Program-made: the position numbers and the translations under genes
Part shown: positions 3,682 to 26,979 of the stretch, one piece after another
Layout: every line of letters begins with the position of its first letter
How positions within the stretch are numbered: position 1 is the first letter of the stretch
Source: a virus
IMG/VR virus record: IMGVR_UViG_3300035698_018668
Location: 1 to 64,000 of that record
Length of the DNA stretch: 64,000 nucleotides
Direction: 5' to 3' (one strand)
The notes under the pieces: model-generated
What the model was told of the DNA's origin: nothing
Seen by the model: the letters and a program-made list of their open reading frames with translations, nothing else
Database searches by the model: none

Positions 3682-3700
3682 ATACCTACAGGAATTGACG

Positions 3701-4066
3701 ATGCAAATGAATAACCCCTCTCCACGATTCGAAGTTACCTTTAACAATACTAAAAAAGAAGTGTTTATGAGCTTCGGCCTAGTGAATACGATTGCCGGAA
3801 TGTTTGAAGACATGAGCCAGCTTACTGAGGCATTTACCAACCCACATGTCCGAGGCGCTCTGGTGGTTGAATGCTTATCAGAGCGCAATGAAAATGGCGG
3901 TCTAGTAAAAGAAATAGATTTGAATACACTGGGCATAGAAACAGAGCATTTATTTGAATTCCTTACTTGGGTGGAGGCCCACGTTTCTGATTTTTTTACT
4001 CAGAGTTTGGTAAGGGCGACGAGCTCGATGCGGAAAAAAGCTCAGGGAATGAAAGAAAAACCCTAG
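3701..4066 (+). CDS. tail assembly chaperone, short form (lambda gpG-like role)
   Basis: A 121-aa acidic protein between tail tube and tape measure genes, the invariant place of tail assembly chaperones. The start is the ATG ending a recurrent leader copy (CAGGAATTGACGATG). Near its end the frame runs through a T-TTT-TTT heptamer (3991-3997) in the right phase for -1 slippage; a second, overlapping frame then continues to 4353. The short form ends in a Lys-rich tail at 4066. Chaperone identity is from gene order and frameshift architecture. Confidence 0.75.
   Translation: MQMNNPSPRFEVTFNNTKKEVFMSFGLVNTIAGMFEDMSQLTEAFTNPHVRGALVVECLSERNENGGLVKEIDLNTLGIETEHLFEFLTWVEAHVSDFFTQSLVRATSSMRKKAQGMKEKP
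3991..3997 (+). other. -1 frameshift slippery heptamer T TTT TTT
   Basis: In the zero frame the codons read gat-ttt-ttt-act, so the heptamer is X-XXY-YYZ with X and Y both T. The -1 frame has a TGA at 3988-3990, just upstream, and is open from there to 4353. A shift here therefore makes a 217-aa fusion. A second A-run at 4033-4038 is a poorer candidate because the phase gives mismatched re-pairing. Confidence 0.75.
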
Positions 4067-4353
4067 AGAGTTTTTCAACTTGGTACGAAGAGCTCACCTT
4101 TGATGAAAAAATGTGTGTCGTATTCAAAACCGTTCCTAGTCGGTTGAACACTTTCTTTTGGAAGTATACGAAAGTTGATGTTCAGTGCGAGATAAAGCTG
4201 CAGCTGGGATTAAAAACGATTGAGATGACACAGCAATATGAAAATATGCTGAAGGTCGCAGGGGCAATTTTCGGAGAATCCGAAGACGATAAGCCCAAAC
4301 CACCTAAAGACGAAGCAGAGGCCATGGCGCAGTTCGCCGCTCTAGGCCTTTAA
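3997..4353 (+). CDS. tail assembly chaperone C-terminal frame (lambda gpGT-like), expressed by -1 frameshift
   Basis: This frame adds about 118 residues to the first 99 of the upstream gene after slippage at 3991-3997. It contains the TFDEKMCVVFKTVPSRLNTFF segment and ends just before the tape measure leader. The first ATG (4111) has no Shine-Dalgarno sequence, and well-formed coding continues upstream of it to the slip site, so an independent start is unlikely. By analogy with lambda gpGT, the fusion should bind the tape measure and recruit tube subunits. Confidence 0.75.
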   Translation, partial: YSEFGKGDELDAEKSSGNERKTLESFSTWYEELTFDEKMCVVFKTVPSRLNTFFWKYTKVDVQCEIKLQLGLKTIEMTQQYENMLKVAGAIFGESEDDKPKPPKDEAEAMAQFAALGL

Positions 4354-4370
4354 AAATTTGGAGATTGACG

Positions 4371-9878: not shown

Positions 9879-9879
9879 T

Positions 9880-10272
9880 ATGGCCTTGCAAACTTTTAAT
9901 TTTCCGTACCACTCAGTGCAAACTGAATACCCCAACAGAGGGCTTTCGGTGGCCCTGGGGGGCGGCTGGGAATATACCGTTAAACCAAACACGCCGATAG
10001 CGGTAGATTTAACCCTAACTTTTGCTGCGATGAAACGCTTTGATGAGGGCTTAGTGCTGACCGACCGACAAGAGGATATCAGCCTTGCTCGTCTTGAAAC
10101 ATTCTACAGAGAACATGAGATGCACGAATACTTTTTGTATGAGCACCCAAATTTAGGTAATATGGTTGTTAAGTTTTCAGCCCCGTTGGTCGTTCCTCCG
10201 GGGACTATTGGCGGAGATGGGGCCGTATTAAACCTGACTTTTCGGTTAAAACAGAGGTCAATAGGTTACTAA
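9880..10272 (+). CDS. minor tail protein, lambda gpM-like
   Basis: A 130-aa beta-rich protein starting 2 bases after the tape measure stop, with only a weak GGA, so probably coupled. It includes TFAAMKRFDEGLVL and a long beta C-terminus ending LTFRLKQRSIGY, as in short minor tail proteins placed between tape measure and gpL. It probably forms part of the distal tail adaptor. Family call by size, position and beta pattern. Confidence 0.65.
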   Translation: MALQTFNFPYHSVQTEYPNRGLSVALGGGWEYTVKPNTPIAVDLTLTFAAMKRFDEGLVLTDRQEDISLARLETFYREHEMHEYFLYEHPNLGNMVVKFSAPLVVPPGTIGGDGAVLNLTFRLKQRSIGY

Positions 10273-10305
10273 TTAACCTTTTATCAATTAAATGAATAAA
10301 ATAGC

Positions 10306-10334
10306 TTGTAAATGGGCTTAAGTATAGGTAATCT
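10306..10334 (+). promoter_or_regulatory. candidate sigma70-type promoter
   Basis: TTGTAA and TAATCT are separated by exactly 17 bases in the 195-base gap after the M-like gene. Both hexamers are imperfect. It would drive the tail-tip genes, but a terminator hairpin (10386-10419) lies between it and the next start. Confidence 0.3.
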
Positions 10335-10367
10335 ACACTCCGGTTAGCTTGCTACGGTAAGTTGATT

Positions 10368-10379
10368 ATCGTCAATTCC
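10368..10379 (-). repeat. orphan antisense copy of the recurrent start leader
   Basis: The minus strand reads GTTGGAATTGACGATAATC, a full match to the leader consensus, but the start codon is lost (ATA) and no leftward reading frame follows. GTTGAT/ATCAAC arms flank it. It is probably the remnant of a leftward gene once present here, or a leader acting without a gene. Confidence 0.6.
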
Positions 10380-10385
10380 AACATC

Positions 10386-10419
10386 AACCCCGCATTCATC
10401 GTGTGGGGTTTCTTTGTTT
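10386..10419 (+). terminator. terminator-like hairpin before the gpL-like gene
   Basis: The arms AACCCC and GGGGTT, with extra CA/TG pairing, are followed by the T-rich TCTTTGTTT. The stem is short and the loop long, so efficiency may be moderate. Confidence 0.5.
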
Positions 10420-10467
10420 ATAGCCTGGAATAAGTTAGACTCAGGTTTAAAATTTGGAGAATTGACG

Positions 10468-10956
10468 ATGCCGGAAATTAGCGCAACTTTTAAAGAGGAA
10501 ACTCAAAGCCTCTCACCTACAAAACCTCTTACGTTTATAGAAATTCTTTTCGAAGACCATCTAGCCAACAACATTGCGCTGCGCTTTACCGATGGCGATA
10601 CTGTTAATTGGAAGGGCCAAACCTGGTCTAATCAACCTTTTAAAATGACGTCGATAATTAAGTCCTCTTCAGGGGAAGTTACCCGCCCAAAGCTCACTCT
10701 TCCGAATGACCAAGGGTTGTTCTCAGCTTACGTTTCTAAAAAGGTTCTGGACTTCGCAGAGGTTAATTCCTTTAAATGTTCTCCCTTGGAGCTGGATACC
10801 TTTGACGGGTTTCAACAAAGTTTTGTGGTATCTCATGTTGTCAGCTTATCTCAAGAAGCAATCACTATGGAATTAAGAAGAGCGAGTGATGGCAATAATT
10901 TTCGGTTACCCCCTAAGCGATATACTCAACCAGAATTCCCAACGGTGATCGTATGA
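10468..10956 (+). CDS. minor tail protein, lambda gpL-like
   Basis: A 162-aa protein in the slot of lambda gpL, immediately before the NlpC/P60-type gene. The pattern FIEILFEDHLANNIALRFTD, a Trp-containing early beta segment, and a C-terminus with Arg and Pro (LPPKRYTQPEFP) fit gpL/DUF2163-like tail-tip proteins. The single conserved-type Cys (in FKCSPLEL) is not enough to claim the Fe-S cluster of gpL. The start is the ATG at the end of a leader copy; the next gene overlaps by 4 bases. Confidence 0.65.
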   Translation: MPEISATFKEETQSLSPTKPLTFIEILFEDHLANNIALRFTDGDTVNWKGQTWSNQPFKMTSIIKSSSGEVTRPKLTLPNDQGLFSAYVSKKVLDFAEVNSFKCSPLELDTFDGFQQSFVVSHVVSLSQEAITMELRRASDGNNFRLPPKRYTQPEFPTVIV

Positions 10957-11435
10957 TTAGTGAGCTCTTTAAGCTGGTTGGAAAGCCGTATGCTGAAGGT
11001 TATCAAGATTGCTATACCTTGGCTCAAAAGTATTACCTTCAGCAGTTTAATATCCAGCTGACGAATTATGCTCGTCCGAATAACTGGCATCATGTTACAG
11101 GCTTTAATTTGTTTGACCGATTTTTTGAGGCTGAGGGTTTTCAGGACACAGGGAATAACGCCCATAATGTAAAAGTGGGGGATGCGTTGTTAATCAATAT
11201 TGCCCGGAGCGCCTGTACGAATCATGTGGCTATTTACGTTGGCCAAAATAAGATTTTGCATCACCTACAAGGTCAGAATTCTAAAATGGAGCCGTATTCA
11301 GACCGTTGGCGCTTTAGAGTAAAGCGAGTTTTGAGGACTCCTGCAGCGCATTATGGAAACGATTTAACTTCACTTTCTAGTTTTTACAATCAGTTGCCTC
11401 CAACCATCAAGAGCCGCCTAAAGAATGAAAATTAA
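10953..11435 (+). CDS. tail-tip NlpC/P60 peptidase
   Basis: A 160-aa protein with the NlpC/P60 layout: catalytic Cys20 in QDCYTLAQKYY, His91 in NHVAIYVGQ and a polar third residue near His103/His104. It probably cuts peptidoglycan stem peptides during tail penetration. It corresponds to the C-terminal domain of lambda gpK, but here it is a separate gene and comes before the JAB gene, the reverse of the gpK domain order. ATGA overlap upstream and 11-base overlap downstream indicate coupling. Confidence 0.85.
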   Translation: MISELFKLVGKPYAEGYQDCYTLAQKYYLQQFNIQLTNYARPNNWHHVTGFNLFDRFFEAEGFQDTGNNAHNVKVGDALLINIARSACTNHVAIYVGQNKILHHLQGQNSKMEPYSDRWRFRVKRVLRTPAAHYGNDLTSLSSFYNQLPPTIKSRLKNEN

Positions 11436-11769
11436 ACTTGCTAAGTTACACAGCTATTGGGTGCCTGATATTGAGCGATGTGGATTTGTTTTAACAACGG
11501 GCGAAATCCTTGAGGCCGAGAATATCCACAATAACCCAGCCGAGGAATTTGAAATATGTCCTTCCGAATTTGAGAGTTATACGGATAGAGTTGCAGCGGT
11601 TTGGCACTCGCACCCAATTACAAATGCCAACTTGAGCCTTGCAGACTACGACACCTTTGATAACTTTAGGAACCTAACGCATATTATTGTCGGCCAGCAT
11701 GAGGTTATCAGTTACAAATTTAAAAATTCTGTATTACTAATAGACGAGGTTTACCGTGGTAACAATTAA
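11425..11769 (+). CDS. JAB/MPN (JAMM) metallopeptidase, tail tip
   Basis: A 114-aa protein with a perfect JAMM signature: His61-x-His63-x7-Ser71-x2-Asp74 (HSHPITNANLSLAD), and a likely N-terminal Glu near residue 17. JAMM domains are zinc isopeptidases or peptidases; in tailed phages they form the N-terminal half of gpK. It overlaps both neighbours by 11-14 bases. The split and swapped arrangement relative to lambda gpK is unusual but both active sites look intact. Confidence 0.85.
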   Translation: MKIKLAKLHSYWVPDIERCGFVLTTGEILEAENIHNNPAEEFEICPSEFESYTDRVAAVWHSHPITNANLSLADYDTFDNFRNLTHIIVGQHEVISYKFKNSVLLIDEVYRGNN

Positions 11770-12487
11770 TCTAACCGGTTTCGATAATAGCATTCCCAAG
11801 ACCATTAAACTTGAGGCCAGAACTTACAAAGAGGCCCTTGAAGGGCTTAAGTTATTCGATTTCTTCAATCCTATAAAGCAGACAAAGCGATTTATTTGTG
11901 AGGTATCCGAGTGCAACGAGGCACAAAAGTTTACTTCAGATATTAAGAATGGCGTAATGACTTTGGTATGTAACGAAACCGTAAAACAAAAGCAACTTAG
12001 GGGGGCGGGGAATAGAAACGTACGTTTTGTAATTGGCGTCATCCTGATTGTTACTGCGGTTATATTAACTTCGGGTATGGCCCTTGCGGAGATACCCTGG
12101 TATATGACTGTGATGTTCAATGTGGGTGTCAGTTTGGTTCTTGGCGCTATTATTGAGCTGATAACAGAACCCGGTTCTGGAGATGCTAACAAGCGGCAAA
12201 GTCGCTCGGCTAGAACATACCCAAACACAGTGGAATCGGGAACCCCGATAGCCTTGATATTTGGTACCCACCGTTTCGGGGGGCATATCTTTAGCGTCAA
12301 TATTGAGTCCGCCAACGGTTCGGATGTCTATTTCAGTAAGTTTGCCGAAAATCTTTGGGTCAATATAGACCCCAACCGCCGGGACTCTTGGGATATGGTC
12401 TATAGAAATGCTGACACAAAGGAAACAGGCCTTCAAGAATGGGAGGGTTATTTAAGGACCCAAATCGGGGGGTACCAGATACCTTAA
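11756..12487 (+). CDS. tail assembly protein, lambda gpI-like
   Basis: A 243-aa protein starting at GTG inside the 3' end of the JAB gene. The N-terminal ~75 residues form a ubiquitin-like segment (KEALEGLKLFDFF), followed by an Arg/Gly linker and two adjacent hydrophobic segments at about residues 88-140, the layout of gpI proteins. A longer than usual C-terminus contains NTVESGTPIALIFGTHRFGG, a motif resembling the start of J proteins (parsimony with pre-J segments). It assists assembly of the tail tip with J. Confidence 0.75.
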   Translation: MVTINLTGFDNSIPKTIKLEARTYKEALEGLKLFDFFNPIKQTKRFICEVSECNEAQKFTSDIKNGVMTLVCNETVKQKQLRGAGNRNVRFVIGVILIVTAVILTSGMALAEIPWYMTVMFNVGVSLVLGAIIELITEPGSGDANKRQSRSARTYPNTVESGTPIALIFGTHRFGGHIFSVNIESANGSDVYFSKFAENLWVNIDPNRRDSWDMVYRNADTKETGLQEWEGYLRTQIGGYQIP

Positions 12488-12553
12488 AAAGAAACTGAGT
12501 GATATAGTACAGGCCTACAATTTAAATATGACGATGATTAACTAGGAGCACCC

Positions 12554-15500
12554 ATGAAATATAAGGGTAGTGGCGGCGGAGGACCGTCTGATAAGTCAGA
12601 CACTTTATTTTCTACGGATGCTTTTGAAATCCTTTTAGGTATTGCTGAAGGACCTATATTTGGTATAGCTGGGGACACCCCAGAAGAAAAGCTGCAGAAT
12701 ATTTTTATTAATGATACGCCTATCTTTGATACGAATAATGTCGATAATTTCGATGAAAGCCAATTACTCATCCGTTTTGAAAAAGGGTTAGAAGTTACTG
12801 CTGCGGAAGACCCTGAGTTTGGGCAAACTCCAATTCGGTATATTTTTGATGGTGCAACGGTTAACCAATCAGTTGGCTCGCAATTACTTTTTGAGGTCCC
12901 GATTTCAAAAACGACCCCGCTAATTACTGGCGGGTTTGACCGTATTCAAGTTAGAATTTTGGTGTCCTCCCTTGTCAGATACACCGATGATGGCGCTAGA
13001 ACTCATGAAGTGGATTTTGACATAAAATGCACAAAGGTTGGAGCTACAACTTGGACCCTCGAAAGTCACAATATTTCAGGGAAAACTACAGGTAGTGGAT
13101 TTACTCGGGAGTACACGATAATCGTACCCCGAACTGTGGGGACTGAAGCCTACGAAATTGAAGTAGTAAAGCGCACCAACGATGAAGATGATGATAAGAG
13201 GGACTCCCAAATATATTGGCAGTCTTACGACCTAATCAGCTCGAAAGGGGACGCCTATTCAAACGATGAAACCCCCTATAGTGACCCGAGTTTAGAGTAT
13301 CATCCGGGAACCTCGATGCTGCATTTTTCAGGGGTTCTAGGGCAGCAATTAAATTCTGTCCCGACAATCAATGCGAACTACCGAGGGCTAATGTGCTCGG
13401 TACCCTCAAACTACACTCCGGAAACTAAAACCTATGATGAAACATCCGCATGGGACGGCACCTTTAGCGCTGAGAAATACCCCACGGATAATCCAGTTTG
13501 GTTGGCTCATGAGCTAATCACAAACCTGCGTTTCGGCGCAGTTAGGTATAACCCAAAAATAAAGGTCAACCGCTACTCTTGGTATGAAAAAGCAAAGTAT
13601 GCCGATGGCTATAATGCGATTACTGGGGTTAAAGATTTAAACGACCCAATCTCAGGGGCTCAGCAAGTTGCGCGGTACACCTTCAACGCCGTATTGACCG
13701 ACCCAAGCAACGGCATTAAATTCGTTAATCAGATACTGGCAACGGCCTATTTCCTCGCCGTAGAAGATGAGCTTGGTGAAATCAAGCTTTATGCCGACAT
13801 GCCTTCTTTGCCTGTAGAGACCCTCACCCCTGAAATGTGCGTTCAAGTGACAGGACAGAGTGAGTTTTTATATTCTTACTCGCCTCTTAAAGAGCGCAGC
13901 AATGAAGTCAAAGCCAGTTACATCGACAAGGACAATGAGTACGTAACGCAGTATTTGGGGGCTATAAGAGATGAGGATGCTATTGCCAAGTACGGGCTAA
14001 ACTCAACGGAGTTCACTGCGCTAGGAACCACCACTTCGTGGGAATGCTATCGCAAGATGTATTTGATGCTGTCCTCAATGCTGTCCGAAGTTGAAATCGT
14101 TACTTTTACGTTGCCCCTTGCAGGAATTCAATTCAGCATATTTGAAGTGGTTAATATTATTGACCCCGTGATGGGGTATGGCCTTTCAGGTCGAATTATT
14201 TCCCTTAATTATGCCTCTCGAAAGATAAGTGTCCGGGACCCATTATTCATTGATGAAACTGGGATTTACACCGTAAAAATTCAGGGCCTAACGCAAACCC
14301 ACGAATACACAACCTTTATATCTCTGGACAAAGAAGGAATCCCGCTATTTGAATTTACGTTGAACGCGGACCTCCCTCCTCAAGTTGAGCTTGCAGAGTA
14401 CCCAGTGGTGCGTATCGAGAACCCAATAAATTCAACGAAGACTGTTGGCCTTCCTAAGCCTTATCGCATCACGAACATTGAAGAGAGCGATGATAAGGGC
14501 ATCGACATGTATGTTATTAGTGCTGTTGAGGTTAATCCTAACAAGCACACTGACGCGGATTTACTGACCCAGAGTGTCACGCCCCAATATAATTTCTTCA
14601 GGTCTAAGCCACTTAAGAAGGTCCAGAACCTACAAGTTGTTGACCAGAGCACGGTGCGAACGCTAAAAGGGGCGAATAACAGCCTCTGGATAAGTTGGGA
14701 TGAGCAAGAAGACCGCCCACTTGGAACGCTTTATAATATTGAGGTGATAACCGATAGTATATCTGGGGCGAACCAGACCTACATCACGTCTGAGAACTTT
14801 GCAGAAATTAAAGGTTTGGACTTTGGTAATATTATTATCCAAGTGACCGCTGAAGCTAATTCTGTCTCAGGGCCTTCAGCATTCGTTAAGTGGGAAATTG
14901 TGAGGGTTAACGCTGGGGACTTAACATTATCTTCAGCTGTTCCGGTGATAAATGCCGCCCTAAATGGGTTTGTATTGAACGCGGACTTAGAGCTCCCCTA
15001 TGCGTTTAGCAATAACCCAAATGAGGTAATCGACCTGCTTAAAGTCGGGTATATCGATCGCGTTTTCTGCCAGCTCTTTGACATCTCAGGAACGGGGAAT
15101 GTTTACCTTGGTGAGTTCTTTTCTAAGAACGGAGAGTTTAATCTCACGGCCAGCCAAATAAGACAGGTACTGAAGAATCCGGAGGTACTCCCCGATGAGC
15201 TGCAGCTGCGCTTTCATTTTGAGGACTCGGTTAGAGACCGCTATCCAGGTACTTCAAATTTGGATTTTACTTATGTGATCCAAACGGTAGGGACTATAAC
15301 CGGCGTGGTACTCTCCGCTTTAGACAGTGATTATTCTGAGTACCAAGCGGATTGGGATAGTACGCACTTTGGCTACGATGTGACATTATTTGAGAATGAT
15401 GGGAAGACTGTTGTTTTCAAAACTACCGTGTTTACTAACAGCCTCAATCTACCGACCTTAGATCCAAGCAAGAATTATAAATTTGTTATTCAAGGGTTCT

Positions 15501-18500
15501 CAGAAGCTTACGTTTATAGTGTGGCACAAACCACGCAGCTAAACGCACCTACGGAAGTAACCCCGTTAGCCTCGCCGGATATTAAAGTACTCGCGGGAAG
15601 CATTGTATTAACGCCCCCAAGCATTGTAAAAAGCAATCGGGTTTATCAATTCAAGTACAACACCGTAAATAATATTAATACGGCCCTAGATGGTGTCAGT
15701 GGCAACGCCTTAACGATTAACAACGTGATAGGCGGGCAAACTTACTACTTCTGGTATAGAAGCTCGTCTGAGGCCGGTGTGGGCTCTTGGAGAACTACTT
15801 CTGCAGTTGGGCAAGAGCAAACGCTTTATGATTGGAAGGTGTGGGCTAATGATGCAGCGGGGGCTGGAATTTCTGTGGTTGAGGGGGATAGGCCTTATGT
15901 GGGTATCAGCTCAGGCCATACAACATCCACGCCAGTAATTACCGACCCAAGCATTTACACCTTCATCTTAAAGAAGGGTGAGAAGGGTGATGAGGGGATA
16001 CTCCCAGCCCCAACTGGGAATCCAGGGCTTTTTGCAAACGACACGCACCTCGGTTATCACGATGGAACTAATTGGGCAACTTACTTTGATAGCGCAGGTA
16101 GGCTTTATCTAAACGGGTCCAGTGACTTAACCAGTTTCTTCTACTTTGACGGCGGGGATATGCGCCTGACAGGGTTTGGAGATTTCGATGGTGGTCTTCG
16201 AGCTGACTTAGACGGGGCTTATATTGGTGTGGGTCGTGAACCTGCTGCGGACTATAGCGGGGGTTTTGCTACTTCCGCAACTTTTGCGGAAGCGATAATG
16301 GGCTTTGGTTTGCAGTATATTAAAGCCACAGTCCAAGGCATCTTCATGGAGGGGGATGTGTATGTAAACAACACATTGCTTACCGATATTGTGGCTAGTG
16401 GCGCGAATAACAGCACTATTTCTATCAGTGCCGGAGACTGTTTGACTACAGGCGGGAGCTTCACGCTCAATCAAAGCTCTAATAAAACAATTACCATCGA
16501 CCATGGTTCTCTGGCGGCTTCAATAGACTATGGCGTAAAAAACAGTCTAGCCGTAATCAACTTCATATCTCAAGACAGTTTTGGACATCTAAAGTCAGCC
16601 GAAACGATAGACCTAGCTGCAGAGTTTGCTAAGTATATTCCGAAAACTTCGATTAACACTTCAGCCACCTCTACGAGCAGTACTACGGTTGCTGCTTCTA
16701 GCGCTCTTAGGAGCGTGTATTTGACCGCTAATGATGCCTTACCTAAAAGTGGTGGTTCCTTAACGGGTAACCTCAGTATGGGGTCTAATAATGTTATATT
16801 TACTAGCACGTATGGACTTCAGTCTACTGGACCGTGGTTGAAGCTAAGTACTGCTCATGGATATATCGAATTTGGGCCAGCTAATGCTACTTATGCTCAT
16901 ATTTATACTGACCGACCTAATTTTTATTTTAATAAAGAATTACAAGTATTAGGTAAAGAAGTATACCACGCAGGGAATATCCCAACGTGGGACCAAGACA
17001 CTACGGGTACGGCTGCTAATGCGAACCAACTAGCAGGTAATCAAGCAAGTTACTACAATCATCGTAATTATAATGATGTAACCAACTACTTAGGTGGTTA
17101 TTATGTATCCGGGGGCTCTGAGAAACCTAACGGCTCTTTATTTGGTTCTGGTAGATTAAAGCTTGCAATGCTTGCAGGTTCAAACTTAGGAGTCGTCGGT
17201 ACGTGGCATGATGTTCTATGGTTAAGTGGTTACTCTGGCGGGGATGTTAAGACCTCTACAGCATTAAGCTTTAGTAAAAACACATCAGGCGTTCCAGTTG
17301 TTAACATCTTACAGCAAGCATTTGATGCTCCGGCTTGGGGTACTCCTTATGAGATATATCATACAGGTAACATTCCAACGTGGGATCAGAGTACAACGGG
17401 TAATGCAGCAACGGCAACAAATTTAGCGAATATACCTACGAGTTTTAACGGTACGTATCCTATGGTCGTTAATGCCAGCGGTACGCTATATAGTGATGCC
17501 GGAGTTACTTTTAGAGGTTCCGACAACACGCTAACTTGTACTAACTTTGCGGGCAACGCGTCAACAGTGACTGATGGTGTTTATCTCAACGCTAACAACG
17601 TCCTGAATGGTAACAATGAGTTTAGTAGCACTGACACAAGTGGTAATTATGGTACTGCGGGTATAGAACTACGTGAAGTTGGGCGTGTTGGCAATGCCCA
17701 AAGTGTTCCTGCTTACGCACCGGCATTATCCTTTCACTGGGGACAGCGAGTACAGGGTCGTTTAGCATTACACTCCGATAGTAGGTTTCATTTTACAGAT
17801 GGAGGAACACACACTACTTATAAAGATGTTCAAGCAAGGACTTTTTATGGTGCTTTAAATGGTAATGCCACAACAGCCTCAACAGCTTCTAAGGTCACAT
17901 TTAATGCAGCAGACACTTCTAATAATAACTGGAAGGTTCTTTGGGGTAACAGCTCAGACTACGTCTATCAAACTGCGGGGTTCACATTTAACCCTTCTAA
18001 AGGTGAGTTACAAGTTGGAGGGGATATTGTCTGTGGTACAGACGTTAGAGTGCAAGGTACAGGTTCAAATACTGCTCCTGCTACTGATGACTTGATGTTA
18101 AGCGGGTATGGTCTTATGGGCAACCGTGGAAATATTTACATCACGAATAGCTCAGGGGATGTGTCAATTGGTTCAGGGAATGTACATGGTTCATCTACAA
18201 AGTTAATTATTAGTAACAACTCTGTCAACATATATAATAGTAACTTACTGATAGGTGGAACTGAGGTAATTGCGGCTAATAGGGCAGCTACGTTTCCTTC
18301 CGTACAACTAGGCTCTATAGTTTTAAGCGAGAGTACTGATAGCAGTGGATTACTTAGGATATCTGATGCTACTACAACTTGGTCAGGGATACAGATAGGA
18401 AATAACACTGAAGATTTGTGGTCATTTATGGCTGACGGTGATACCGCTGGTATATACAACGACTCAACTAATGAATGGCACATCCTGTTTGCCGACAATG

Positions 18501-18895
18501 GGGCTACTCAACTACACCACAATGCGGTTTCTAGGTTGCAAACCACTTCGTCTGGGGTAAACGTGACGGGCATTGTAACTGCAAGTGGAACAATAACGGG
18601 CTCTGACGCAATAGCTACTTCTGATAGAAGGCTGAAAGAAAATTTAGTTAAAATAGAAGACCCAATTGGTAAGCTGAATGCTATTAATGGGTATACGTTT
18701 AACTGGATTAGTAACCCTGACGAACGGGTTGCTCACACGATAGCTCAAGAGGTTGAAGCTGTATACCCTGAAGCTGTAAAGACTAATGAAGAGGGTACTA
18801 AGCACGTATCCTTATCAGCAGAAATAGCCTTACTAATTGAAGTGTGTAAAGCACAGCAAAAAGAAATTGACGAACTGAAAAGGAAAGTTAGTTAA
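12554..18895 (+). CDS. tip attachment protein J fused to long tail fibre with S74-type chaperone
   Basis: A 2113-aa protein with AGGAG 6 bases before ATG. The first ~800 residues are J-like (Gly-rich start, IAEGPIFGI, FNDTPI-type segment, fibronectin-like repeats). A short GEKGDEG collagen-like piece near 1140 leads to fibre-type repeats, including two units with the shared phrase HAGNIPTWDQDTTG / HTGNIPTWDQSTTG. The last ~90 residues (SDRRLKENLVKIEDPIGKL, then a terminal coiled coil) are the intramolecular chaperone of the peptidase S74 family, which trimerises the fibre and then cuts itself off. It should determine receptor binding. One polypeptide thus joins hub and fibre. Confidence 0.9.
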   Translation: MKYKGSGGGGPSDKSDTLFSTDAFEILLGIAEGPIFGIAGDTPEEKLQNIFINDTPIFDTNNVDNFDESQLLIRFEKGLEVTAAEDPEFGQTPIRYIFDGATVNQSVGSQLLFEVPISKTTPLITGGFDRIQVRILVSSLVRYTDDGARTHEVDFDIKCTKVGATTWTLESHNISGKTTGSGFTREYTIIVPRTVGTEAYEIEVVKRTNDEDDDKRDSQIYWQSYDLISSKGDAYSNDETPYSDPSLEYHPGTSMLHFSGVLGQQLNSVPTINANYRGLMCSVPSNYTPETKTYDETSAWDGTFSAEKYPTDNPVWLAHELITNLRFGAVRYNPKIKVNRYSWYEKAKYADGYNAITGVKDLNDPISGAQQVARYTFNAVLTDPSNGIKFVNQILATAYFLAVEDELGEIKLYADMPSLPVETLTPEMCVQVTGQSEFLYSYSPLKERSNEVKASYIDKDNEYVTQYLGAIRDEDAIAKYGLNSTEFTALGTTTSWECYRKMYLMLSSMLSEVEIVTFTLPLAGIQFSIFEVVNIIDPVMGYGLSGRIISLNYASRKISVRDPLFIDETGIYTVKIQGLTQTHEYTTFISLDKEGIPLFEFTLNADLPPQVELAEYPVVRIENPINSTKTVGLPKPYRITNIEESDDKGIDMYVISAVEVNPNKHTDADLLTQSVTPQYNFFRSKPLKKVQNLQVVDQSTVRTLKGANNSLWISWDEQEDRPLGTLYNIEVITDSISGANQTYITSENFAEIKGLDFGNIIIQVTAEANSVSGPSAFVKWEIVRVNAGDLTLSSAVPVINAALNGFVLNADLELPYAFSNNPNEVIDLLKVGYIDRVFCQLFDISGTGNVYLGEFFSKNGEFNLTASQIRQVLKNPEVLPDELQLRFHFEDSVRDRYPGTSNLDFTYVIQTVGTITGVVLSALDSDYSEYQADWDSTHFGYDVTLFENDGKTVVFKTTVFTNSLNLPTLDPSKNYKFVIQGFSEAYVYSVAQTTQLNAPTEVTPLASPDIKVLAGSIVLTPPSIVKSNRVYQFKYNTVNNINTALDGVSGNALTINNVIGGQTYYFWYRSSSEAGVGSWRTTSAVGQEQTLYDWKVWANDAAGAGISVVEGDRPYVGISSGHTTSTPVITDPSIYTFILKKGEKGDEGILPAPTGNPGLFANDTHLGYHDGTNWATYFDSAGRLYLNGSSDLTSFFYFDGGDMRLTGFGDFDGGLRADLDGAYIGVGREPAADYSGGFATSATFAEAIMGFGLQYIKATVQGIFMEGDVYVNNTLLTDIVASGANNSTISISAGDCLTTGGSFTLNQSSNKTITIDHGSLAASIDYGVKNSLAVINFISQDSFGHLKSAETIDLAAEFAKYIPKTSINTSATSTSSTTVAASSALRSVYLTANDALPKSGGSLTGNLSMGSNNVIFTSTYGLQSTGPWLKLSTAHGYIEFGPANATYAHIYTDRPNFYFNKELQVLGKEVYHAGNIPTWDQDTTGTAANANQLAGNQASYYNHRNYNDVTNYLGGYYVSGGSEKPNGSLFGSGRLKLAMLAGSNLGVVGTWHDVLWLSGYSGGDVKTSTALSFSKNTSGVPVVNILQQAFDAPAWGTPYEIYHTGNIPTWDQSTTGNAATATNLANIPTSFNGTYPMVVNASGTLYSDAGVTFRGSDNTLTCTNFAGNASTVTDGVYLNANNVLNGNNEFSSTDTSGNYGTAGIELREVGRVGNAQSVPAYAPALSFHWGQRVQGRLALHSDSRFHFTDGGTHTTYKDVQARTFYGALNGNATTASTASKVTFNAADTSNNNWKVLWGNSSDYVYQTAGFTFNPSKGELQVGGDIVCGTDVRVQGTGSNTAPATDDLMLSGYGLMGNRGNIYITNSSGDVSIGSGNVHGSSTKLIISNNSVNIYNSNLLIGGTEVIAANRAATFPSVQLGSIVLSESTDSSGLLRISDATTTWSGIQIGNNTEDLWSFMADGDTAGIYNDSTNEWHILFADNGATQLHHNAVSRLQTTSSGVNVTGIVTASGTITGSDAIATSDRRLKENLVKIEDPIGKLNAINGYTFNWISNPDERVAHTIAQEVEAVYPEAVKTNEEGTKHVSLSAEIALLIEVCKAQQKEIDELKRKVS

Positions 18896-20112
18896 TGGCT
18901 ATATTTACAGTAAATGTGTTTTATGAGTTTGGAGAAGGCGGTGGAATTTCAGCTACCACCACCGACAATCTCAGCGCAATGGCGCGTGGAGATTACCTGC
19001 ACATGTATGGTGATTTTTCTGGACCCGGAACGAATAACATTTACGCTAGGGGATTTCAGTCGGGTGTTTGGACCAATACAGCCGATGTATTATTAAACTC
19101 AGGACAGACTACAATAAAGCGAATCAGCCTATCTGCTGCTGACGGTGCGAATGACATTGTATTGTTTACCCGAACTAACACTACGGGCGATAGCGTAGCT
19201 ATTACTGTTAGTGTTGCGGATGTTACGCCAGATACCTTTAATTGGAATAACGTATCTAATGTAGAGCCAAATACCGCGATTAATTTAGGGTCCCAACGGC
19301 TGTTAGGATTTAACCGCCCCTTGGGTGTTTCCGTAACTAACGGGTATCACTTAATTTACAGGGGCTCTCGTATAATTTATGGCGGCTCTGTAGAAAATAA
19401 TGACCTCTTAGAAATAAGAACCTCTGAATTTACTGACTATGGGCAATCAAAAACAGTGACGGTTTCTGTTGGCTCGGTACCGAGTAAAAATATAAGTGTT
19501 GCTGCGAGAACAGGTCCATTAATAGATCAACTAATTCCTTTAGGTATCACATCGGGCACCATAGCTTTAAAAGCAAGTTTGTTTAATTTCTTTGGTGGGG
19601 TAAGCCCGTCAAATGTCAAACTAACTGACTACTACAAAGGGGGTAATTATGTACCCACGATTTCTCAAAATTCAGCAGTGCCCACTTCCGGTCAAATTAA
19701 GTTAACTGACTTTTATGGCTCACACACAGCTTATTATTTTATCATTCCTCCTGTGGGTAAATCAGTTGAGGCCAATACAATTAGTGCGGCTCGCACTCTT
19801 ACTCTAGTTTGGGATAAAGGGTTTAGTGATTGGGAAATAGGTTTTGGGGCAGGGTTGGAAGCAACCGCGCAATACACGTTACAAGTGTCGGTGGATAACA
19901 ACGGAGCAGGTACGACAAGTCCGACCATAACCGGAGCTAGTGGCACATTCAGCACTGCTAACACTCGAATAACAATATCTCAAACTATGGCGCAAAGTAC
20001 CGAAAGACTAATTTCAGGCACGTTAACAATCGGGGCTAGAAATGTTATTGATGGTACCACACAGTCTATATCCAGAACGGTAGATTGGTCGCTCATATTT
20101 TATGGACCTTAA
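18895..20112 (+). CDS. tail fibre-associated protein
   Basis: A 405-aa protein with TAATG overlap to the fibre gene and AAGGAAAG upstream. It is beta-rich, Ser/Thr/Asn-rich and has two related segments near residues 235 and 265 (SNVKLTDYYKGG and GQIKLTDFYGS). The second type, GQIKLTDFYGS, is frequent in phage tail fibres and tip proteins. Probably a fibre accessory or receptor-binding subunit. Confidence 0.65.
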   Translation: MAIFTVNVFYEFGEGGGISATTTDNLSAMARGDYLHMYGDFSGPGTNNIYARGFQSGVWTNTADVLLNSGQTTIKRISLSAADGANDIVLFTRTNTTGDSVAITVSVADVTPDTFNWNNVSNVEPNTAINLGSQRLLGFNRPLGVSVTNGYHLIYRGSRIIYGGSVENNDLLEIRTSEFTDYGQSKTVTVSVGSVPSKNISVAARTGPLIDQLIPLGITSGTIALKASLFNFFGGVSPSNVKLTDYYKGGNYVPTISQNSAVPTSGQIKLTDFYGSHTAYYFIIPPVGKSVEANTISAARTLTLVWDKGFSDWEIGFGAGLEATAQYTLQVSVDNNGAGTTSPTITGASGTFSTANTRITISQTMAQSTERLISGTLTIGARNVIDGTTQSISRTVDWSLIFYGP

Positions 20113-20125
20113 GAGGATTACTTAA

Positions 20126-20476
20126 ATGGTAACAGCAACTTTTACAGACCCTCAAGGGCAGACGTGGACAAATGCGGTTATTAAGGCTGTTAACTTTTCG
20201 TTAGTCAGTAATGTACTCAAAGAAAGAACGCATGGCACGAGTGAGGTTTTTAGTTATACCGATGAACTGGATTCTTATTATGACATCCACACTCAATTTG
20301 CTTATTGGGCAAACCAAGCATCTTTAGATGCCAACAACCCCCCTTACATTTTAAGTAGGGAAAGTGCTTCACCTCCTTCGAACTGGTTTTGGTTTAGTAG
20401 TGAAGGTGTCGCGCCAATTGATTTAGATGCTATAGAACTAGCGTGTGAATCTTATTTAGTCACCCATATTTTATAA
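20126..20476 (+). CDS. tail-associated hypothetical protein, paralog A
   Basis: A 116-aa protein with AGAGGA upstream. It shares length and a motif order with the next gene: TDPQGQxW at the start, FxYWxxQ and PYIL in the middle, then AC..YL near the C-terminus. Both follow the fibre genes, suggesting a duplicated small fibre or adhesin component. No known family recognised. Confidence 0.6.
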   Translation: MVTATFTDPQGQTWTNAVIKAVNFSLVSNVLKERTHGTSEVFSYTDELDSYYDIHTQFAYWANQASLDANNPPYILSRESASPPSNWFWFSSEGVAPIDLDAIELACESYLVTHIL

Positions 20477-20493
20477 ACCACTGAGGATACACC

Positions 20494-20844
20494 ATGGATT
20501 TTTTAACAACCCACACGAATTACACGGACCCCCAAGGTCAGCTTTGGGCCGCGCCCGTATTCGGCATTTCGTATGCTACTGAAAACACTAATCAGAATGC
20601 GGGGGTAGCCTTAGACTTTGAAGATATGTTAACCCTAACGGAAACCATAAGTAAAAATAGAAATGTTAACGTACGTTTCTTTTACTGGCCGAGCCAAGAA
20701 ACCAAGGATACCGGGTATGCCCCCTACATTCTTGCGAATGTCTTAACTATGAGCTTCGACTTTAACGCTTCAGGTGTTGAGTACGAAAATCTTACCCTAA
20801 AAGAAGCTTGTTTTTATTACTTACAAAACACTATTTTAGCTTAA
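20494..20844 (+). CDS. tail-associated hypothetical protein, paralog B
   Basis: A 116-aa protein with GAGGA 7 bases before ATG. It is a diverged copy of the gene just upstream (TDPQGQLW, FFYWPSQE, PYIL, ACFYYL). The matching length and motif spacing argue for tandem duplication followed by divergence. Function unknown. Confidence 0.6.
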   Translation: MDFLTTHTNYTDPQGQLWAAPVFGISYATENTNQNAGVALDFEDMLTLTETISKNRNVNVRFFYWPSQETKDTGYAPYILANVLTMSFDFNASGVEYENLTLKEACFYYLQNTILA

Positions 20845-22119: not shown

Positions 22120-22815
22120 GTGAACGAAGATTTAACCCAGAATACCCCTCTACTCCGGAGGGCTGAAAAACACATTCATTGGAACTTATGGATCCCGATT
22201 ATCGTCGCGGTACTTGGGTGGCTTATGGTTTCGTTTGGTAACTCCGGGGACCAAGAGAAGCTTTATATCGAGACTAACGTGCTCTTAAGTAAACAGCTTG
22301 CGGAACAACGGATTGCCTTTAATGAGCAAATGGAGTCTCAATCCATAAGGTTTGAAAAAATTATTTCTAAATTAACGAAAGATAATATTGAATTAAAACT
22401 CCAATTAGTCCAAGTAAGCGCCGAGCTTAATATCAACATGAACAAAACAGAGCTTTATCAAAATGTACTTAACACATTACCTTTCCCCGCTTGGATAAAA
22501 CGGATGGATGCCGATGGCCAATTCAGGATGGTGATGATTAACGAACAGTTCACCAGCCAGTATGGGATTACCCCAAGTGAGTATGTTGGGCGCACTGATT
22601 TTCAGGTGCACCCTAAGGAGTTAGCCACTAAATATTTTGAAGCTGACCGTAAAGTACTCTCATCAGGTAAAGGATTCACCGAGTACGAAGTTAGTATTCA
22701 AGGGGGGGAGGAAGTTCAAACGCTAGTTTATAGATTCCTTTTTAACCTCCCGAATAATATAGATGGGGTGGCCGGGGTGGCCGTCACCCAAAAACTACTA
22801 AAGAGAAATCCATAA
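22120..22815 (+). CDS. membrane-anchored coiled-coil PAS-domain protein
   Basis: A 231-aa protein starting at GTG with AAAGG upstream. Residues about 20-40 (WIPIIVAVLGWLMVSFG) are one transmembrane helix, about 45-105 a coiled coil, and about 105-225 a PAS domain: NTLPFPAWIKR, then VMINEQFTSQYGITPSEYVG and the RTDFQVHPKELATKYFEAD phrase typical of PAS sensors. No kinase, cyclase or other output domain follows. PAS domains bind small ligands or haem, or dimerise. A phage copy beside late membrane and lysis genes could sense host state or partner a host kinase; this is inference. Confidence 0.75.
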   Translation: MNEDLTQNTPLLRRAEKHIHWNLWIPIIVAVLGWLMVSFGNSGDQEKLYIETNVLLSKQLAEQRIAFNEQMESQSIRFEKIISKLTKDNIELKLQLVQVSAELNINMNKTELYQNVLNTLPFPAWIKRMDADGQFRMVMINEQFTSQYGITPSEYVGRTDFQVHPKELATKYFEADRKVLSSGKGFTEYEVSIQGGEEVQTLVYRFLFNLPNNIDGVAGVAVTQKLLKRNP

Positions 22816-23459
22816 TGCAACTACACGACTTTAATACACTAGCCGAAGCACAAGCGCATATAGAGATAAACCCAGAACTGATTCATCGAGATACGATGAA
22901 TGGGATCCTAGGACTAGGTGGGGTCTATTCAGCAATGAAAAAGATCGCATTTACCGAAGGACATCCCGCGCAAAACGCAATGGATGCCTTTATGGACTCA
23001 TTAGAATTTAATTTTAAAAATGGTGAGCCAGGCAGTACAGGTGAAGTTCAGAAAACCGCGTTTGATAATTTAATCGCTGCGAATATAACAGTTGACATGG
23101 CGGGTACTGTCGTTCAAGTCTCGGCAGTACTGAACGCGCTAAAACCGGTTATATTAGCAAAAGCGAACCCTACAACTACCCCGTTTTTAAATAGAACCCA
23201 GCACGATTTTGATTTGGCGAAGGGTACAATTTCACGTACTCAAGTCACAGTTGAACAAGGTTTTTGCACTATCACAACATCAGCAGACGCACCAAGACAT
23301 AATCCCCAAATATACCGTCGAATTACTTTTACAAACGGTTCTTTTGAGTTCGTTAGAGTGGCAGGTTTTAGAGACGTAGAAGCTGCAAATACTTACCGGG
23401 TACAATGCCCGAACTTCCCTGATTTGTGGGTTGATGATGCGTATAATTTGGTGAGCTAG
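22815..23459 (+). CDS. hypothetical late protein
   Basis: A 214-aa protein overlapping the PAS gene stop by TAATG and ending 2 bases before the next ATG. No recognised motif; Ala-rich helical N-terminal half and beta C-terminal half. Tight spacing to the adhesin gene suggests it is co-expressed with it. Confidence 0.5.
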   Translation: MQLHDFNTLAEAQAHIEINPELIHRDTMNGILGLGGVYSAMKKIAFTEGHPAQNAMDAFMDSLEFNFKNGEPGSTGEVQKTAFDNLIAANITVDMAGTVVQVSAVLNALKPVILAKANPTTTPFLNRTQHDFDLAKGTISRTQVTVEQGFCTITTSADAPRHNPQIYRRITFTNGSFEFVRVAGFRDVEAANTYRVQCPNFPDLWVDDAYNLVS

Positions 23460-23461: not shown

Positions 23462-24925
23462 ATGGCGCATCGTCTATTTAAAGAAGTAAATGCAAACGGA
23501 TACGTAACCTCCCCAACTTTGGGTAATTTACTAACCGCAAGTACTGTATCAGTTGAGATAGATAATTTTACTTGGCCCGATGCCCAGTCGGGTTATATTT
23601 TTTCACAAGCCTCGGGTGTCAGTCAGCAAAGAGAACTAGGTCTTTATTTTTCAGGCAACGGATCTTTGGATTTGTATTTTGGCGGTAGTGATACAACGGT
23701 ACTTAGCTCGGCATACGTATCTCAAATTAAAGGGTTCCTAACAGATGTAGACGTTAAGTTTGAGATAGATATAACTAACTCTATCGTTCGGCTAACAATC
23801 GATAACGGTAATCCTTTAGCGGGCCCGTTTAATAAGGGAACAGCCAGAACAGAGGGTGTTCTTTTTAGATTTCAAGCGAGAGCATCAGACGACAACTCAG
23901 GCTCAACAGGAGGGAGTTATACAGCACCAATTGGCACCAAGATGGGCAACTCCAGAGTTTATATTGACGGTGTTTTAACAAGGAATTACGTTTCAGATGG
24001 CACTGGATCAACTTGGGAAGAAACCGTTGATTCAGGAGCTAGTGACGGCACTATACACTCGTTCCCAACCGACGGCAGCCAGTGGGAAGCCTATGGAATA
24101 GTTGCGACAAACACAGCACCCGTAGCAAATGCAGGTGCTGACCAGACCGATATTGAAGCAGGGGCAACAGTTACACTGGATGGCACATCATCTACCGATG
24201 CTGACTCAGATGCGATCACATATCTATGGACAGCACCGAGCGGGATAACTTTATCAAGCACTACATCTTCACAGCCTACGTTTACCGCACCGTCAACTAA
24301 CGCAGCTCAAAATCTTTCATTTGACTTAGTTGTAAATGATGGCACAGATAACAGTTCATCCGATACTGTTATTATTAGTGTATTAGCAGAAGCGTCACAA
24401 GGCACAGTCACGGGTGCTTATTTCTTACGTAATGAATTTAATTCAAACCAGTTAGTAAGAATAGATCCCGAAATAATTCTCGTAGGTAATTATCGAATCG
24501 AATACGACTTTGTTATTTATCAAGAAAGTAATGACCAAAAATTAATGGACTCATTAACCTCAGTTGATCGACTAGATGTTAACGTGAAGTCCAACGGTAA
24601 TTTAGATTCTAGAAATTATCTTGAATTTGAATTAGATGGAGTGCTAATAACTAATTTATCGTCTTATTATGGGACAAGAATAACACTCAATATTCAAAGA
24701 ACTGCAAATCAAACAGACACATCTAATGTTCGAGTAGGTACACTATTTGGGCGATATAATAACGAATATAACGCAAGTGTAGATTTTTACGGTATGAAAG
24801 TGTTTGATTCAAATAACACTTTAATCGCTCATTTAAAACCACCTACTGATGGGACTGGGGTAATATTACCTGATTCAGTCGGAACTTATGATGGTGACCT
24901 TGGCGGCTACCCTTCACCTCCTTGA
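23462..24925 (+). CDS. adhesin/fibre protein with PKD-like domain (upstream part of split frame)
   Basis: A 487-aa protein. Residues about 1-200 are a beta-sandwich resembling LamG/concanavalin-like modules, about 218-315 a PKD/cadherin-like Ig domain (PVANAGADQTDIEAGATVTL, then SFDLVVNDGTDNSSSDTV), then another LamG-like module. It ends at TGA 24923-24925 in exactly the frame of the next long coding stretch, which lacks a start signal. The stop context reads PSPP-TGA-VYYEEAG; a Trp codon would restore one ~1041-aa gene. Probably a virion adhesin. Confidence 0.7.
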   Translation: MAHRLFKEVNANGYVTSPTLGNLLTASTVSVEIDNFTWPDAQSGYIFSQASGVSQQRELGLYFSGNGSLDLYFGGSDTTVLSSAYVSQIKGFLTDVDVKFEIDITNSIVRLTIDNGNPLAGPFNKGTARTEGVLFRFQARASDDNSGSTGGSYTAPIGTKMGNSRVYIDGVLTRNYVSDGTGSTWEETVDSGASDGTIHSFPTDGSQWEAYGIVATNTAPVANAGADQTDIEAGATVTLDGTSSTDADSDAITYLWTAPSGITLSSTTSSQPTFTAPSTNAAQNLSFDLVVNDGTDNSSSDTVIISVLAEASQGTVTGAYFLRNEFNSNQLVRIDPEIILVGNYRIEYDFVIYQESNDQKLMDSLTSVDRLDVNVKSNGNLDSRNYLEFELDGVLITNLSSYYGTRITLNIQRTANQTDTSNVRVGTLFGRYNNEYNASVDFYGMKVFDSNNTLIAHLKPPTDGTGVILPDSVGTYDGDLGGYPSPP

Positions 24926-26587
24926 GTTTATTACGAAGAGGCCGGTGCTCCAGGGGTAACCCTTGATTTCACACCTATAGTTTTGCAGAGTAGTACCTCG
25001 GTTGAGAGCTTAGCTGTGTCGATGGACCTAGCAGTTACGTCAAACCCAACGCAAATTGTAACGGGCGTCCCAAGTCTAGCGGCCTCTTCGATTCTTACTT
25101 TTGATCCCCTTATAACCCAAACCCAAACTGAGGTCGAAACCCTGGGGATGGGGCAGCTAATTAGTTTAGATTCAATCCAGACGCAAATCTCAGTGGATAT
25201 TTCTAGCTTGAACGCCACCTTGTTGCTCGCATTTAACTCAAGCCCAACCCAAACCCAAACCGATGTCTCCAGCTTGGACGTCTCAATGATCCTTAACCTT
25301 GAGGCTAACAGCACCCAAACGGTGACTGAAGTTCCGAGCTTTAACGTCTCGATGCTTCTCCACCTTGTATCTAGCCCGACACAAACTATAACGGCGGTTC
25401 CTAATGCGGACATAACTCAGGTGCTAGGCCTGAGCTCAATCCAAACTCAGACGATAACAGATGTCCCGCTTTTAGATTTTTCCCAAGTAACCCTACTGCA
25501 ATCGGTGAGCACTGAAACAGTTTACCAAGTGCAAAGCCTAGCTCTTACCTCCCTCGCTAGTTTAGTGGGGGTACTAACCGAAAGCATTACTACGGTTGAG
25601 TCTTTGGATGCCACGGGCATAGTTTCCCTAACATCGGTTCAAACACAACAGCGAACCCAAGTAGAACCGATTCAAGTGGGCTATCAGCAAGCCTTGGAGG
25701 CGGTTCAGTCTCAGATTATTACCCAAGCTCAAACCTTGGACCTTATTAATGCTATCGCTTTTACCGCAAGCCCCACACAAACGATTGTCCAGAGTATCAG
25801 TTTAAGTTTGACTGCGGAGCTAAACCCTCTAGTCATTGCGGCGCAGGTTGTGACCTCGTTTGCTATGGTTAACGTCGCTCAAATACTGGCGCTTAACTCA
25901 GTGGCCACTCAGCAAATAACGCACGTAGAGGAGCTAAACTTAGCTTCTTTGGGGGGTTTGGTTGCCCAAATTCTTGAGATTGACACTACGGTTGTTGAGG
26001 CGGGTATTACCCAAACATTATCCTTATTTGCAGTGCAGACTCAGCAGGATGTTACCGTACCTATAGTGCAAACATCAGGGCTTCAAAGCTTAGCGGTGGC
26101 AACGGTTGAGGTGAATACCAAGACCGATTTGTTAACGCTATTAGACAATCTTAGCCTTATTGCAGTTGTTACCCAGCATGACACAACTGTAACTGGGTTG
26201 ACACTCGGCCAAACTTTATCAACTATGTCGGCTGAAACACAAACGGTTACTGAAGTTGAGCAAGTAGACCTTAACCTATTATTAAACTTTTTTAGTGGAA
26301 GCACTGAACAAGTAACGGAGGTTTCGGATTTAAACTTAGTACTCCAAGGGGGGTTAGATATTCCCCAGGTTGAGATAACTACAGATGTTATTTCAACGAT
26401 GTTGACTACCTTGCTCACCTTTAATAGTGTGCAAACGCAGCAATTAACCGAGGTGGAGATTCTGAATGTTATCTCTACTAATTTAGGGATAGATATTGGG
26501 AATATTATACCCCTGTCCCGAGCGACGATTTTTAATCTAACTCCAACAACTGAAACTTTCTTATTGACGATGAGGTTAACCGAATGA
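24926..26587 (+). CDS. repeat-rich C-terminal region in frame after TGA (readthrough product or broken adhesin)
   Basis: Open in the same frame as 23462-24925 from the base after its TGA, about 553 residues. It is built from roughly twenty ~23-residue repeats with the pattern S-x-x-TQT-x-T-x-V-x-x-L-x-V...L, probably a beta-solenoid or fibrous stalk. The first possible starts (TTG 24983, ATG 25021) have no Shine-Dalgarno sequence. I therefore favour TGA readthrough or a recent nonsense mutation over an independent gene. The intact, unmutated repeats argue against long-standing loss. It overlaps the next start by ATGA. Confidence 0.65.
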   Translation, partial: VYYEEAGAPGVTLDFTPIVLQSSTSVESLAVSMDLAVTSNPTQIVTGVPSLAASSILTFDPLITQTQTEVETLGMGQLISLDSIQTQISVDISSLNATLLLAFNSSPTQTQTDVSSLDVSMILNLEANSTQTVTEVPSFNVSMLLHLVSSPTQTITAVPNADITQVLGLSSIQTQTITDVPLLDFSQVTLLQSVSTETVYQVQSLALTSLASLVGVLTESITTVESLDATGIVSLTSVQTQQRTQVEPIQVGYQQALEAVQSQIITQAQTLDLINAIAFTASPTQTIVQSISLSLTAELNPLVIAAQVVTSFAMVNVAQILALNSVATQQITHVEELNLASLGGLVAQILEIDTTVVEAGITQTLSLFAVQTQQDVTVPIVQTSGLQSLAVATVEVNTKTDLLTLLDNLSLIAVVTQHDTTVTGLTLGQTLSTMSAETQTVTEVEQVDLNLLLNFFSGSTEQVTEVSDLNLVLQGGLDIPQVEITTDVISTMLTTLLTFNSVQTQQLTEVEILNVISTNLGIDIGNIIPLSRATIFNLTPTTETFLLTMRLTE

Positions 26588-26979
26588 ACTATAGCTCTTT
26601 CCAATACAAACAGGCTCCTAAAGCCGTCCTTGAAGCGTGTGATGAAATCGGGATTGTAAAGAACCCGCTTACCACAGATACCAACGCGGAGTTTACTGCT
26701 AAGGTTATCTGCACTACATCTATGTCTGCGGCTGATGTAGCAACGACCCTTGAGGCTGACCGTCGTGCTCGCTTTTCTGTGAATGGTAAAAGTGGTATTG
26801 ACCCAAGCGGTGCCGCGGTTGCCGCCACGGATGACATCTGTTTATTCTTTAGAAACACAACCGCAAGTCGCGTTGAGTTTGTCCAAGATATTACGGATAA
26901 AGACATTGCCAATGATGATGGGGATTTGTTAAATATCCCAGCGTCGATTCATTATGGAAATGACCCAACGCCAATTTAA
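26584..26979 (+). CDS. hypothetical late protein
   Basis: A 131-aa protein coupled by ATGA overlap to the repeat protein, with GAGGT upstream. No transmembrane segment or motif recognised. Probably a small structural or adhesin-associated protein because of its operon position. Confidence 0.5.
   Translation: MNYSSFQYKQAPKAVLEACDEIGIVKNPLTTDTNAEFTAKVICTTSMSAADVATTLEADRRARFSVNGKSGIDPSGAAVAATDDICLFFRNTTASRVEFVQDITDKDIANDDGDLLNIPASIHYGNDPTPI

What the first reader, a model, noticed from the sequence alone, without database searches (positions are those of the whole stretch)
23462..26587. Adhesin split by one in-frame TGA: readthrough or fresh nonsense mutation
23462-24925 and the repeat region to 26587 are in the same frame and separated only by TGA 24923-24925. 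The second part has no ribosome site at its first starts. Reading the TGA as Trp gives PSPP-W-VYYEEAG, a natural join. Other genes in the window use TGA as stop, so the code is standard. Readthrough could make short and long adhesins, or the phage recently lost its stalk.
Basis: seen in the sequence. Interest (0 to 1): 0.65.

Follow-up and report, generated by a model that had tools for sequence, protein, structure and literature searches.

The report
Phage adhesin gene interrupted by TGA
In an uncultured marine-type phage, one stop codon has replaced a nearly invariant tryptophan codon at the joint between the head and stalk of a tail adhesin; this is most likely a recent, slightly leaky nonsense mutation, and the same gene is unbroken in every related phage examined.

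Summary
In detail: 23462-24922 and 24926-26584 form one frame of 1,041 codons, split only by TGA 24923-24925. In about ten related phages the same slot holds one unbroken gene, a lectin-like head followed by a repeat stalk. The TGA falls on the Trp that closes the head domain (W in 24 of 25 other copies; one has Leu). The aligner puts the stop in that column even when it is coded X. The stalk is an indel-free 22-residue repeat; its array starts before the first possible start codon, which has no ribosome site. The genetic code is standard and there is no suppressor tRNA. No relative carries a stop here, so conservation does not support programmed readthrough. Best reading: a recent TGG-to-TGA nonsense mutation in an ancestrally single gene, probably leaky because Trp-tRNA misreads UGA and would restore the original residue. 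Assembly error is unlikely (another record is identical over 23.4 kb) but not excluded: that record ends before the adhesin. Two surprises: the TGA sits at a mosaic joint where related phages swap heads and stalks, and codon composition changes there (third-position GC 0.28 to 0.45).

The parts
22815..23459 (+). Gene directly upstream; its homologue precedes the adhesin gene in Alteromonas phages R9Y2, R9Y3 and P24, in Slickus01 and in several uncultured phages
23462..24922 (+). Adhesin head, 487 codons: lectin-like domain 1 (aa 1-216), PKD/Ig-like domain (aa 217-309), lectin-like domain 2 (aa 310-487, last strand cut off by the stop)
   Evidence: PKD by Pfam; lectin-like fold of domain 2 from the model, weak matches to LamG and other lectin folds, and family resemblance
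24110..24388 (+). PKD/Ig-like domain inside the head
   Evidence: K319L-like_PKD E 1.7e-10
24872..24943 (+). Closing motif of the head, DSVGTYDGDLGGYPSPP-[TGA]-VYYEEA, equivalent to DTVGGNDGTLVNFPTDNSQ-W-VFYDDG of relatives
24923..24925 (+). In-frame TGA at the near-invariant Trp codon (W in 24 of 25 other sequences, Leu in one)
24926..24958 (+). End of the head domain and linker (VYYEEAGAPGV)
24959..26509 (+). Stalk: half a unit, then an indel-free array of 22-residue units
   Evidence: autocorrelation at lags 22 and 44; unit scores
26444..26584 (+). C-terminal end (QLTEVEILNV...) resembling the C-termini of relatives' adhesins (QLTEAEILHV...)
26585..26587 (+). Terminal TGA, overlapping the ATG of the next gene
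26584..26979 (+). Downstream gene; its homologues follow the adhesin gene in P24 and uncultured phages

Best explanation
23462-26587 is one ancestral gene for a tail adhesin: two lectin-like domains and a PKD domain (head) followed by a 22-residue-repeat stalk. A G-to-A substitution turned the tryptophan codon TGG that closes the second lectin-like domain into TGA. Most ribosomes should now stop at 24925 and make a 487-residue head lacking its last strand and its stalk. A minority probably read UGA as Trp by near-cognate misreading and make the full 1,041-residue adhesin with the original residue restored. Shown here: single-gene ancestry, position at the conserved Trp, absence of a start for the second part, and no stop at this codon in any relative examined. 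Inferred: that the change is recent and real, and that some readthrough occurs.
For: The syntenic gene is one ORF with head plus repeats in L002, L003, L014, L019-L022 and phages P24, R9Y2 and R9Y3, and about 20 further relatives of the head domain show the same build. The stop falls in a column that is Trp in 24 of 25 other sequences, also when coded X. Domain 1 of the same protein has the same motif with Trp (FPTDGSQWEAYG). The TGG-to-TGA change is one transition. The stalk is intact: 553 codons with no second stop and a phase-true 22-residue period. The array begins with a half unit at 24959, before the first possible start at 24983; the half unit scores 2.91 against a maximum of 2.08 over the whole head. 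The code is standard, with no suppressor tRNA. Literature: UGA is the leakiest stop in E. coli and is read mainly as Trp, a G after the stop raises readthrough (here TGA-G), and low temperature raises it too (PMC11126739). C-terminal Pro slows termination (PMC7246954, citing Hayes 2002); here the stop follows Pro-Pro.
Against: Only one record covers the TGA, so its age and frequency are unknown. Only 12 of 383 possible nonsense substitutions in the gene lie within 5 codons of this joint (3%), so a random mutation at the domain boundary is a mild coincidence, counted after the fact. If the stalk is essential, a strict nonsense allele should not dominate an assembly.
Confidence: 0.57

Rival explanations
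1. Programmed readthrough: the TGA is kept by selection so that the phage makes many short heads and a few long, stalked adhesins, as in the Qbeta coat/A1 pair.
For: UGA-G context after Pro-Pro and Trp as the expected inserted residue; intact stalk with no second stop; stop placed at the head/stalk joint (3% by chance); Qbeta precedent, UGA read as Trp at about 1/15 (PMC8067240).
Against: No relative has a stop here. No stable RNA structure follows the TGA (z = +0.81). The short product would lack the closing strand of its last domain (model). Its head codons are diverged from all relatives, so no conservation of the signal can be shown.
Confidence: 0.2
2. Sequencing or assembly error, or a minor allele taken into the consensus: the phage has TGG.
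For: Metagenome contig, single record over the TGA; the ancestral codon is one transition away.
Against: A second record, from another sample by its name (G001, IMGVR_UViG_3300022822_000041), is identical to this contig over 18,003 + 5,370 bases without one mismatch, so the consensus is reliable. It stops at window 20556, before the adhesin.
Confidence: 0.13
3. Two separate genes: a complete head protein, and a stalk protein started inside 24926-25150, perhaps by re-initiation.
For: Same-frame neighbouring genes occur elsewhere in the window; an ATG at 25148 has a purine-rich stretch upstream.
Against: No start for 57 nt after the stop, weak or absent ribosome sites at the first starts, and the repeat array begins before any start. 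All relatives have one gene.
Confidence: 0.06
4. TGA is reassigned or efficiently suppressed in the host, so the protein is normally full length.
For: Reading TGA as Trp restores the conserved residue.
Against: Many other genes in the window stop at TGA, and no other gene of at least 100 codons shows a comparable in-frame extension; no tRNA gene in the window.
Confidence: 0.04

Closest known systems
Adhesin gene of Alteromonas phage P24 (AZU97340) and its relatives in R9Y2/R9Y3 (UNA02094, UNA02149)
   Same: Lectin-like head closed by the Trp motif, repeat stalk; preceded by a homologue of the window's 22815 gene, and in P24 followed by a homologue of the 26584 gene
   Different: Theirs is one unbroken ORF with TGG, has a single head domain and no PKD domain, and the repeat sequence differs
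Qbeta coat/A1 readthrough pair
   Same: One UGA in frame with a long extension; Trp would be the residue inserted
   Different: In Qbeta the stop is the normal end of the coat protein and A1 production is demonstrated; here relatives have a Trp codon and no readthrough has been measured
Laboratory phage lambda, stf gene broken by a frameshift (Hendrix and Duda 1992, as cited in PMC10721106)
   Same: Tail-fibre gene broken by one small mutation while the rest of the frame is intact
   Different: Frameshift selected in the laboratory; here a nonsense codon in an environmental phage

Membership tests
Lectin-head/repeat-stalk tail adhesin (P24-like) | Gene order: 22815-type gene upstream, 26584-type gene downstream | tested here: met
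Lectin-head/repeat-stalk tail adhesin (P24-like) | Head closed by the Gly-Asn-Asp-Gly ... Phe-Pro ... Trp-Val-Phe-Tyr motif | tested here: met
   Motif present in both head domains; in domain 2 the Trp codon is TGA
Lectin-head/repeat-stalk tail adhesin (P24-like) | C-terminal repeat stalk with shared C-terminal end | tested here: met
   22-residue period; C-terminal QLTEVEIL resembles QLTEAEIL. The profile match of the repeats themselves is weak (probability 46%)
Lectin-head/repeat-stalk tail adhesin (P24-like) | One uninterrupted reading frame | tested here: not met
   TGA at 24923; all other complete genes examined are uninterrupted
LamG domain (Pfam) | Pfam LamG profile match | tested here: not met
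   one search lists no LamG match for the head; the fold assignment rests on weak structural matches, so 'lectin-like' is used
Programmed stop-codon readthrough (as Qbeta A1) | Stop followed by a long in-frame extension without its own start | tested here: met
Programmed stop-codon readthrough (as Qbeta A1) | Stop conserved in relatives | tested here: not met
   W in 24 of 25 other sequences and Leu in one
Programmed stop-codon readthrough (as Qbeta A1) | Both products present at a set ratio | not testable with these tools
   Needs mass spectrometry or ribosome profiling
Alternative genetic code (TGA = Trp) | TGA codons inside many genes, few TGA stops | tested here: not met
Nonsense-mutated gene | Stop where relatives have a sense codon one substitution away | tested here: met

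The most novel reading that the evidence does not exclude
A double-stranded DNA phage uses leaky UGA decoding as Trp, at the mosaic joint where its relatives swap adhesin heads and stalks, to make stalkless and stalked adhesins from one gene, perhaps with more of the long form in cold or starved hosts.
Probability: 0.17. Interest if true: 0.7.

Novelty: new member of a known kind. Interest (0 to 1): 0.42.

Why it matters
If it is only a nonsense mutation, it is a snapshot of a phage losing or remodelling its adhesin in nature, like laboratory lambda with its fibres. If readthrough makes functional long adhesin, a DNA phage would tune its receptor-binding apparatus by translational leakiness, and an environmental stop codon would be nearly silent because UGA misreading restores the very residue lost. 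In either case the comparison exposes a head/stalk mosaic joint in a family of marine phage adhesins that are annotated only as hypothetical proteins.

Tried and rejected
Direct search for copies of either half in viral contigs and phage records: none, or only the PKD domain. Search for the joint itself with any codon at the TGA: none. Prokaryote genomes: two scans with the downstream gene found no relatives, and an alignment of head domains was too diverged to search with. Near-identical second record: found, but it ends before the adhesin. RNA structure after the TGA: none better than shuffles. Suppressor tRNA: none. Structure across the joint: too poor to use (mean pLDDT 42). BLAST between head domains 1 and 2 as whole domains: not significant; only the closing motif is clearly shared. 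Recoding to selenocysteine was not pursued, because relatives have Trp.

Full report
WHAT IS THERE. The frame that starts at ATG 23462 runs 487 codons to TGA 24923-24925 and continues in the same frame for 553 codons to a second TGA at 26585-26587. A run of 553 stop-free codons is expected with a chance near 1e-13 from the base composition, and the codon usage of the second part fits the phage's other genes in this frame. The first starts after the TGA are TTG 24983, GTG 25016 and ATG 25022. Their pairing with the 16S rRNA tail is +0.6, -2.7 and -2.7 kcal/mol, against a median of -3.9 for 17 genes of the window. Many genes of the window end in TGA, and no other TGA-ended ORF of at least 100 codons has a same-frame extension beyond 37 codons. 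No tRNA gene was found in the window.

WHAT THE GENE IS. The first part has a PKD/Ig-like domain at residues 217-309 (Pfam E 1.7e-10) between two lectin-like domains. No Pfam LamG match was obtained. The fold of domain 2 is inferred from an AlphaFold2 model with an alignment of relatives (mean pLDDT 77), with weak matches to LamG, sialidase-lectin and galectin folds (best E 0.009). The second part is a repeat array of exactly 22 residues per unit, running some 22 units without an insertion or deletion (autocorrelation peaks at 22 and 44; unit scores). Its C-terminal end, QLTEVEILNV, resembles QLTEAEILHV and similar C-termini in relatives. The profile match between the repeats of the window and those of relatives is weak (46%), so the stalk is placed mainly by position, periodicity and its end.

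RELATIVES. The gene after the adhesin (26584-26979) and the gene before it (22815-23459) led to syntenic loci in uncultured phages and in isolated Alteromonas and Alishewanella phages. In P24, R9Y2, R9Y3, L002, L003, L014 and L019-L022 the adhesin slot holds one unbroken gene with an N-terminal head domain and a C-terminal repeat stalk; L015 and L016 are cut by contig ends or lack the same head. A further scan gave 29 loci of the head domain, and those with a complete gene show the same build.

THE CODON. Relatives' heads close with a motif such as DTVGGNDGTLVNFPTDNSQWVFYDDG. The window has DSVGTYDGDLGGYPSPP-TGA-VYYEEAG. In an alignment of 26 sequences in which the TGA was coded X, the aligner placed it in the Trp column: W in 24 of the 25 others (23 from relatives, one from the window's own domain 1), Leu in one, L068. 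Some of these sequences are close to each other, so 24 is not a count of independent events. In the model this Trp begins a predicted strand at the end of the domain body (residues 175-178), so the stop cuts into the head domain as well as removing the stalk. Trp has only the codon TGG, so a single G-to-A transition explains the TGA.

ONE GENE, NOT TWO. The 22-residue array starts with a half unit at 24959, which scores above every stretch of the head (2.91 against a maximum of 2.08). The first possible start codon is 24983, already inside the array. A separate stalk gene would therefore begin in mid-repeat without a ribosome site.

A MOSAIC JOINT. DNA comparison of relatives shows that the Trp motif lies at a joint where modules are exchanged. 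L020 and L021 share a stalk (93.7% identical) from 3 nt before the Trp codon onward, with unrelated heads. L041 and L054 share a head (96%) up to 27 nt after it, with unrelated stalks. Many pairs share only an island of about 50-140 nt that spans the codon (also for R9Y2/R9Y3). In the window, third-position GC changes from 0.28 to 0.45, with a likelihood plateau at codons 472-516; the TGA is codon 488, and the change far exceeds permutations (LLR 15.9 against a maximum of 7.5). The head may thus be a recent import, although the different amino-acid make-up of the stalk could contribute to the shift.

HOW IT PROBABLY WORKS. Most ribosomes should stop and release a 487-residue product without the stalk. 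UGA is the leakiest stop in E. coli and is read mainly as Trp; a G directly after the stop and low temperature both raise readthrough there (PMC11126739). C-terminal Pro slows termination (PMC7246954). The context here is Pro-Pro-UGA-G. Some full-length protein with the ancestral Trp is therefore expected; the amount is unknown, and the transfer from E. coli to this host is an inference. No stimulating RNA structure was found after the TGA.

RECENT MUTATION, PROGRAMMED SIGNAL OR ERROR. No relative has a stop at this codon, which argues against an old programmed signal. The intact stalk says that the change is young or that some long product is still made. The joint position is mildly unexpected for a random nonsense mutation (12 of 383 possible nonsense substitutions lie within 5 codons), but this was counted after the fact. 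Error is unlikely, because a second record (G001, IMGVR_UViG_3300022822_000041) is identical over 18,003 and 5,370 bases. That record ends at window 20556, so the TGA itself rests on a single record. I put recent leaky nonsense mutation at 0.57, programmed readthrough at 0.20, artefact at 0.13, separate genes at 0.06 and recoding at 0.04.

KNOWN OR NEW. It is a new case of known kinds: a broken tail-fibre gene (lambda stf) or, if shown by experiment, UGA readthrough with Trp (Qbeta A1). It is not filed as programmed readthrough, because conservation of the stop was tested and not met.

Noticed in passing
L020/L021, L041/L054, L005/L008 and others around the Trp codon: Short DNA homology islands (about 50-140 nt) spanning the head-closing motif join unrelated heads to unrelated stalks: a mosaic joint for adhesin module exchange.
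   Followed up: partly
window 24992-26509: Stalk repeats keep a 22-residue period with no indel over some 22 units, with a stronger 44-residue periodicity; a beta-solenoid-like stalk is possible but was not modelled with confidence.
   Followed up: partly
window 33105-62779, minus strand: A start-site box GGAATTGACGATATG, or close to it, precedes several genes of the right arm: 10 matches against 0.65 expected.
   Followed up: no
window 22120-22815: A PAS-domain protein with an N-terminal hydrophobic segment lies in the tail-gene cluster just upstream of the adhesin (PAS_4, E 7e-9).
   Followed up: no
window 2554-20556 and 58631-64000: Record IMGVR_UViG_3300022822_000041 is identical to the window here and runs across the ends of this record with about 10 kb extra, so the phage genome is probably circular or circularly permuted and about 76 kb.
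   Followed up: partly
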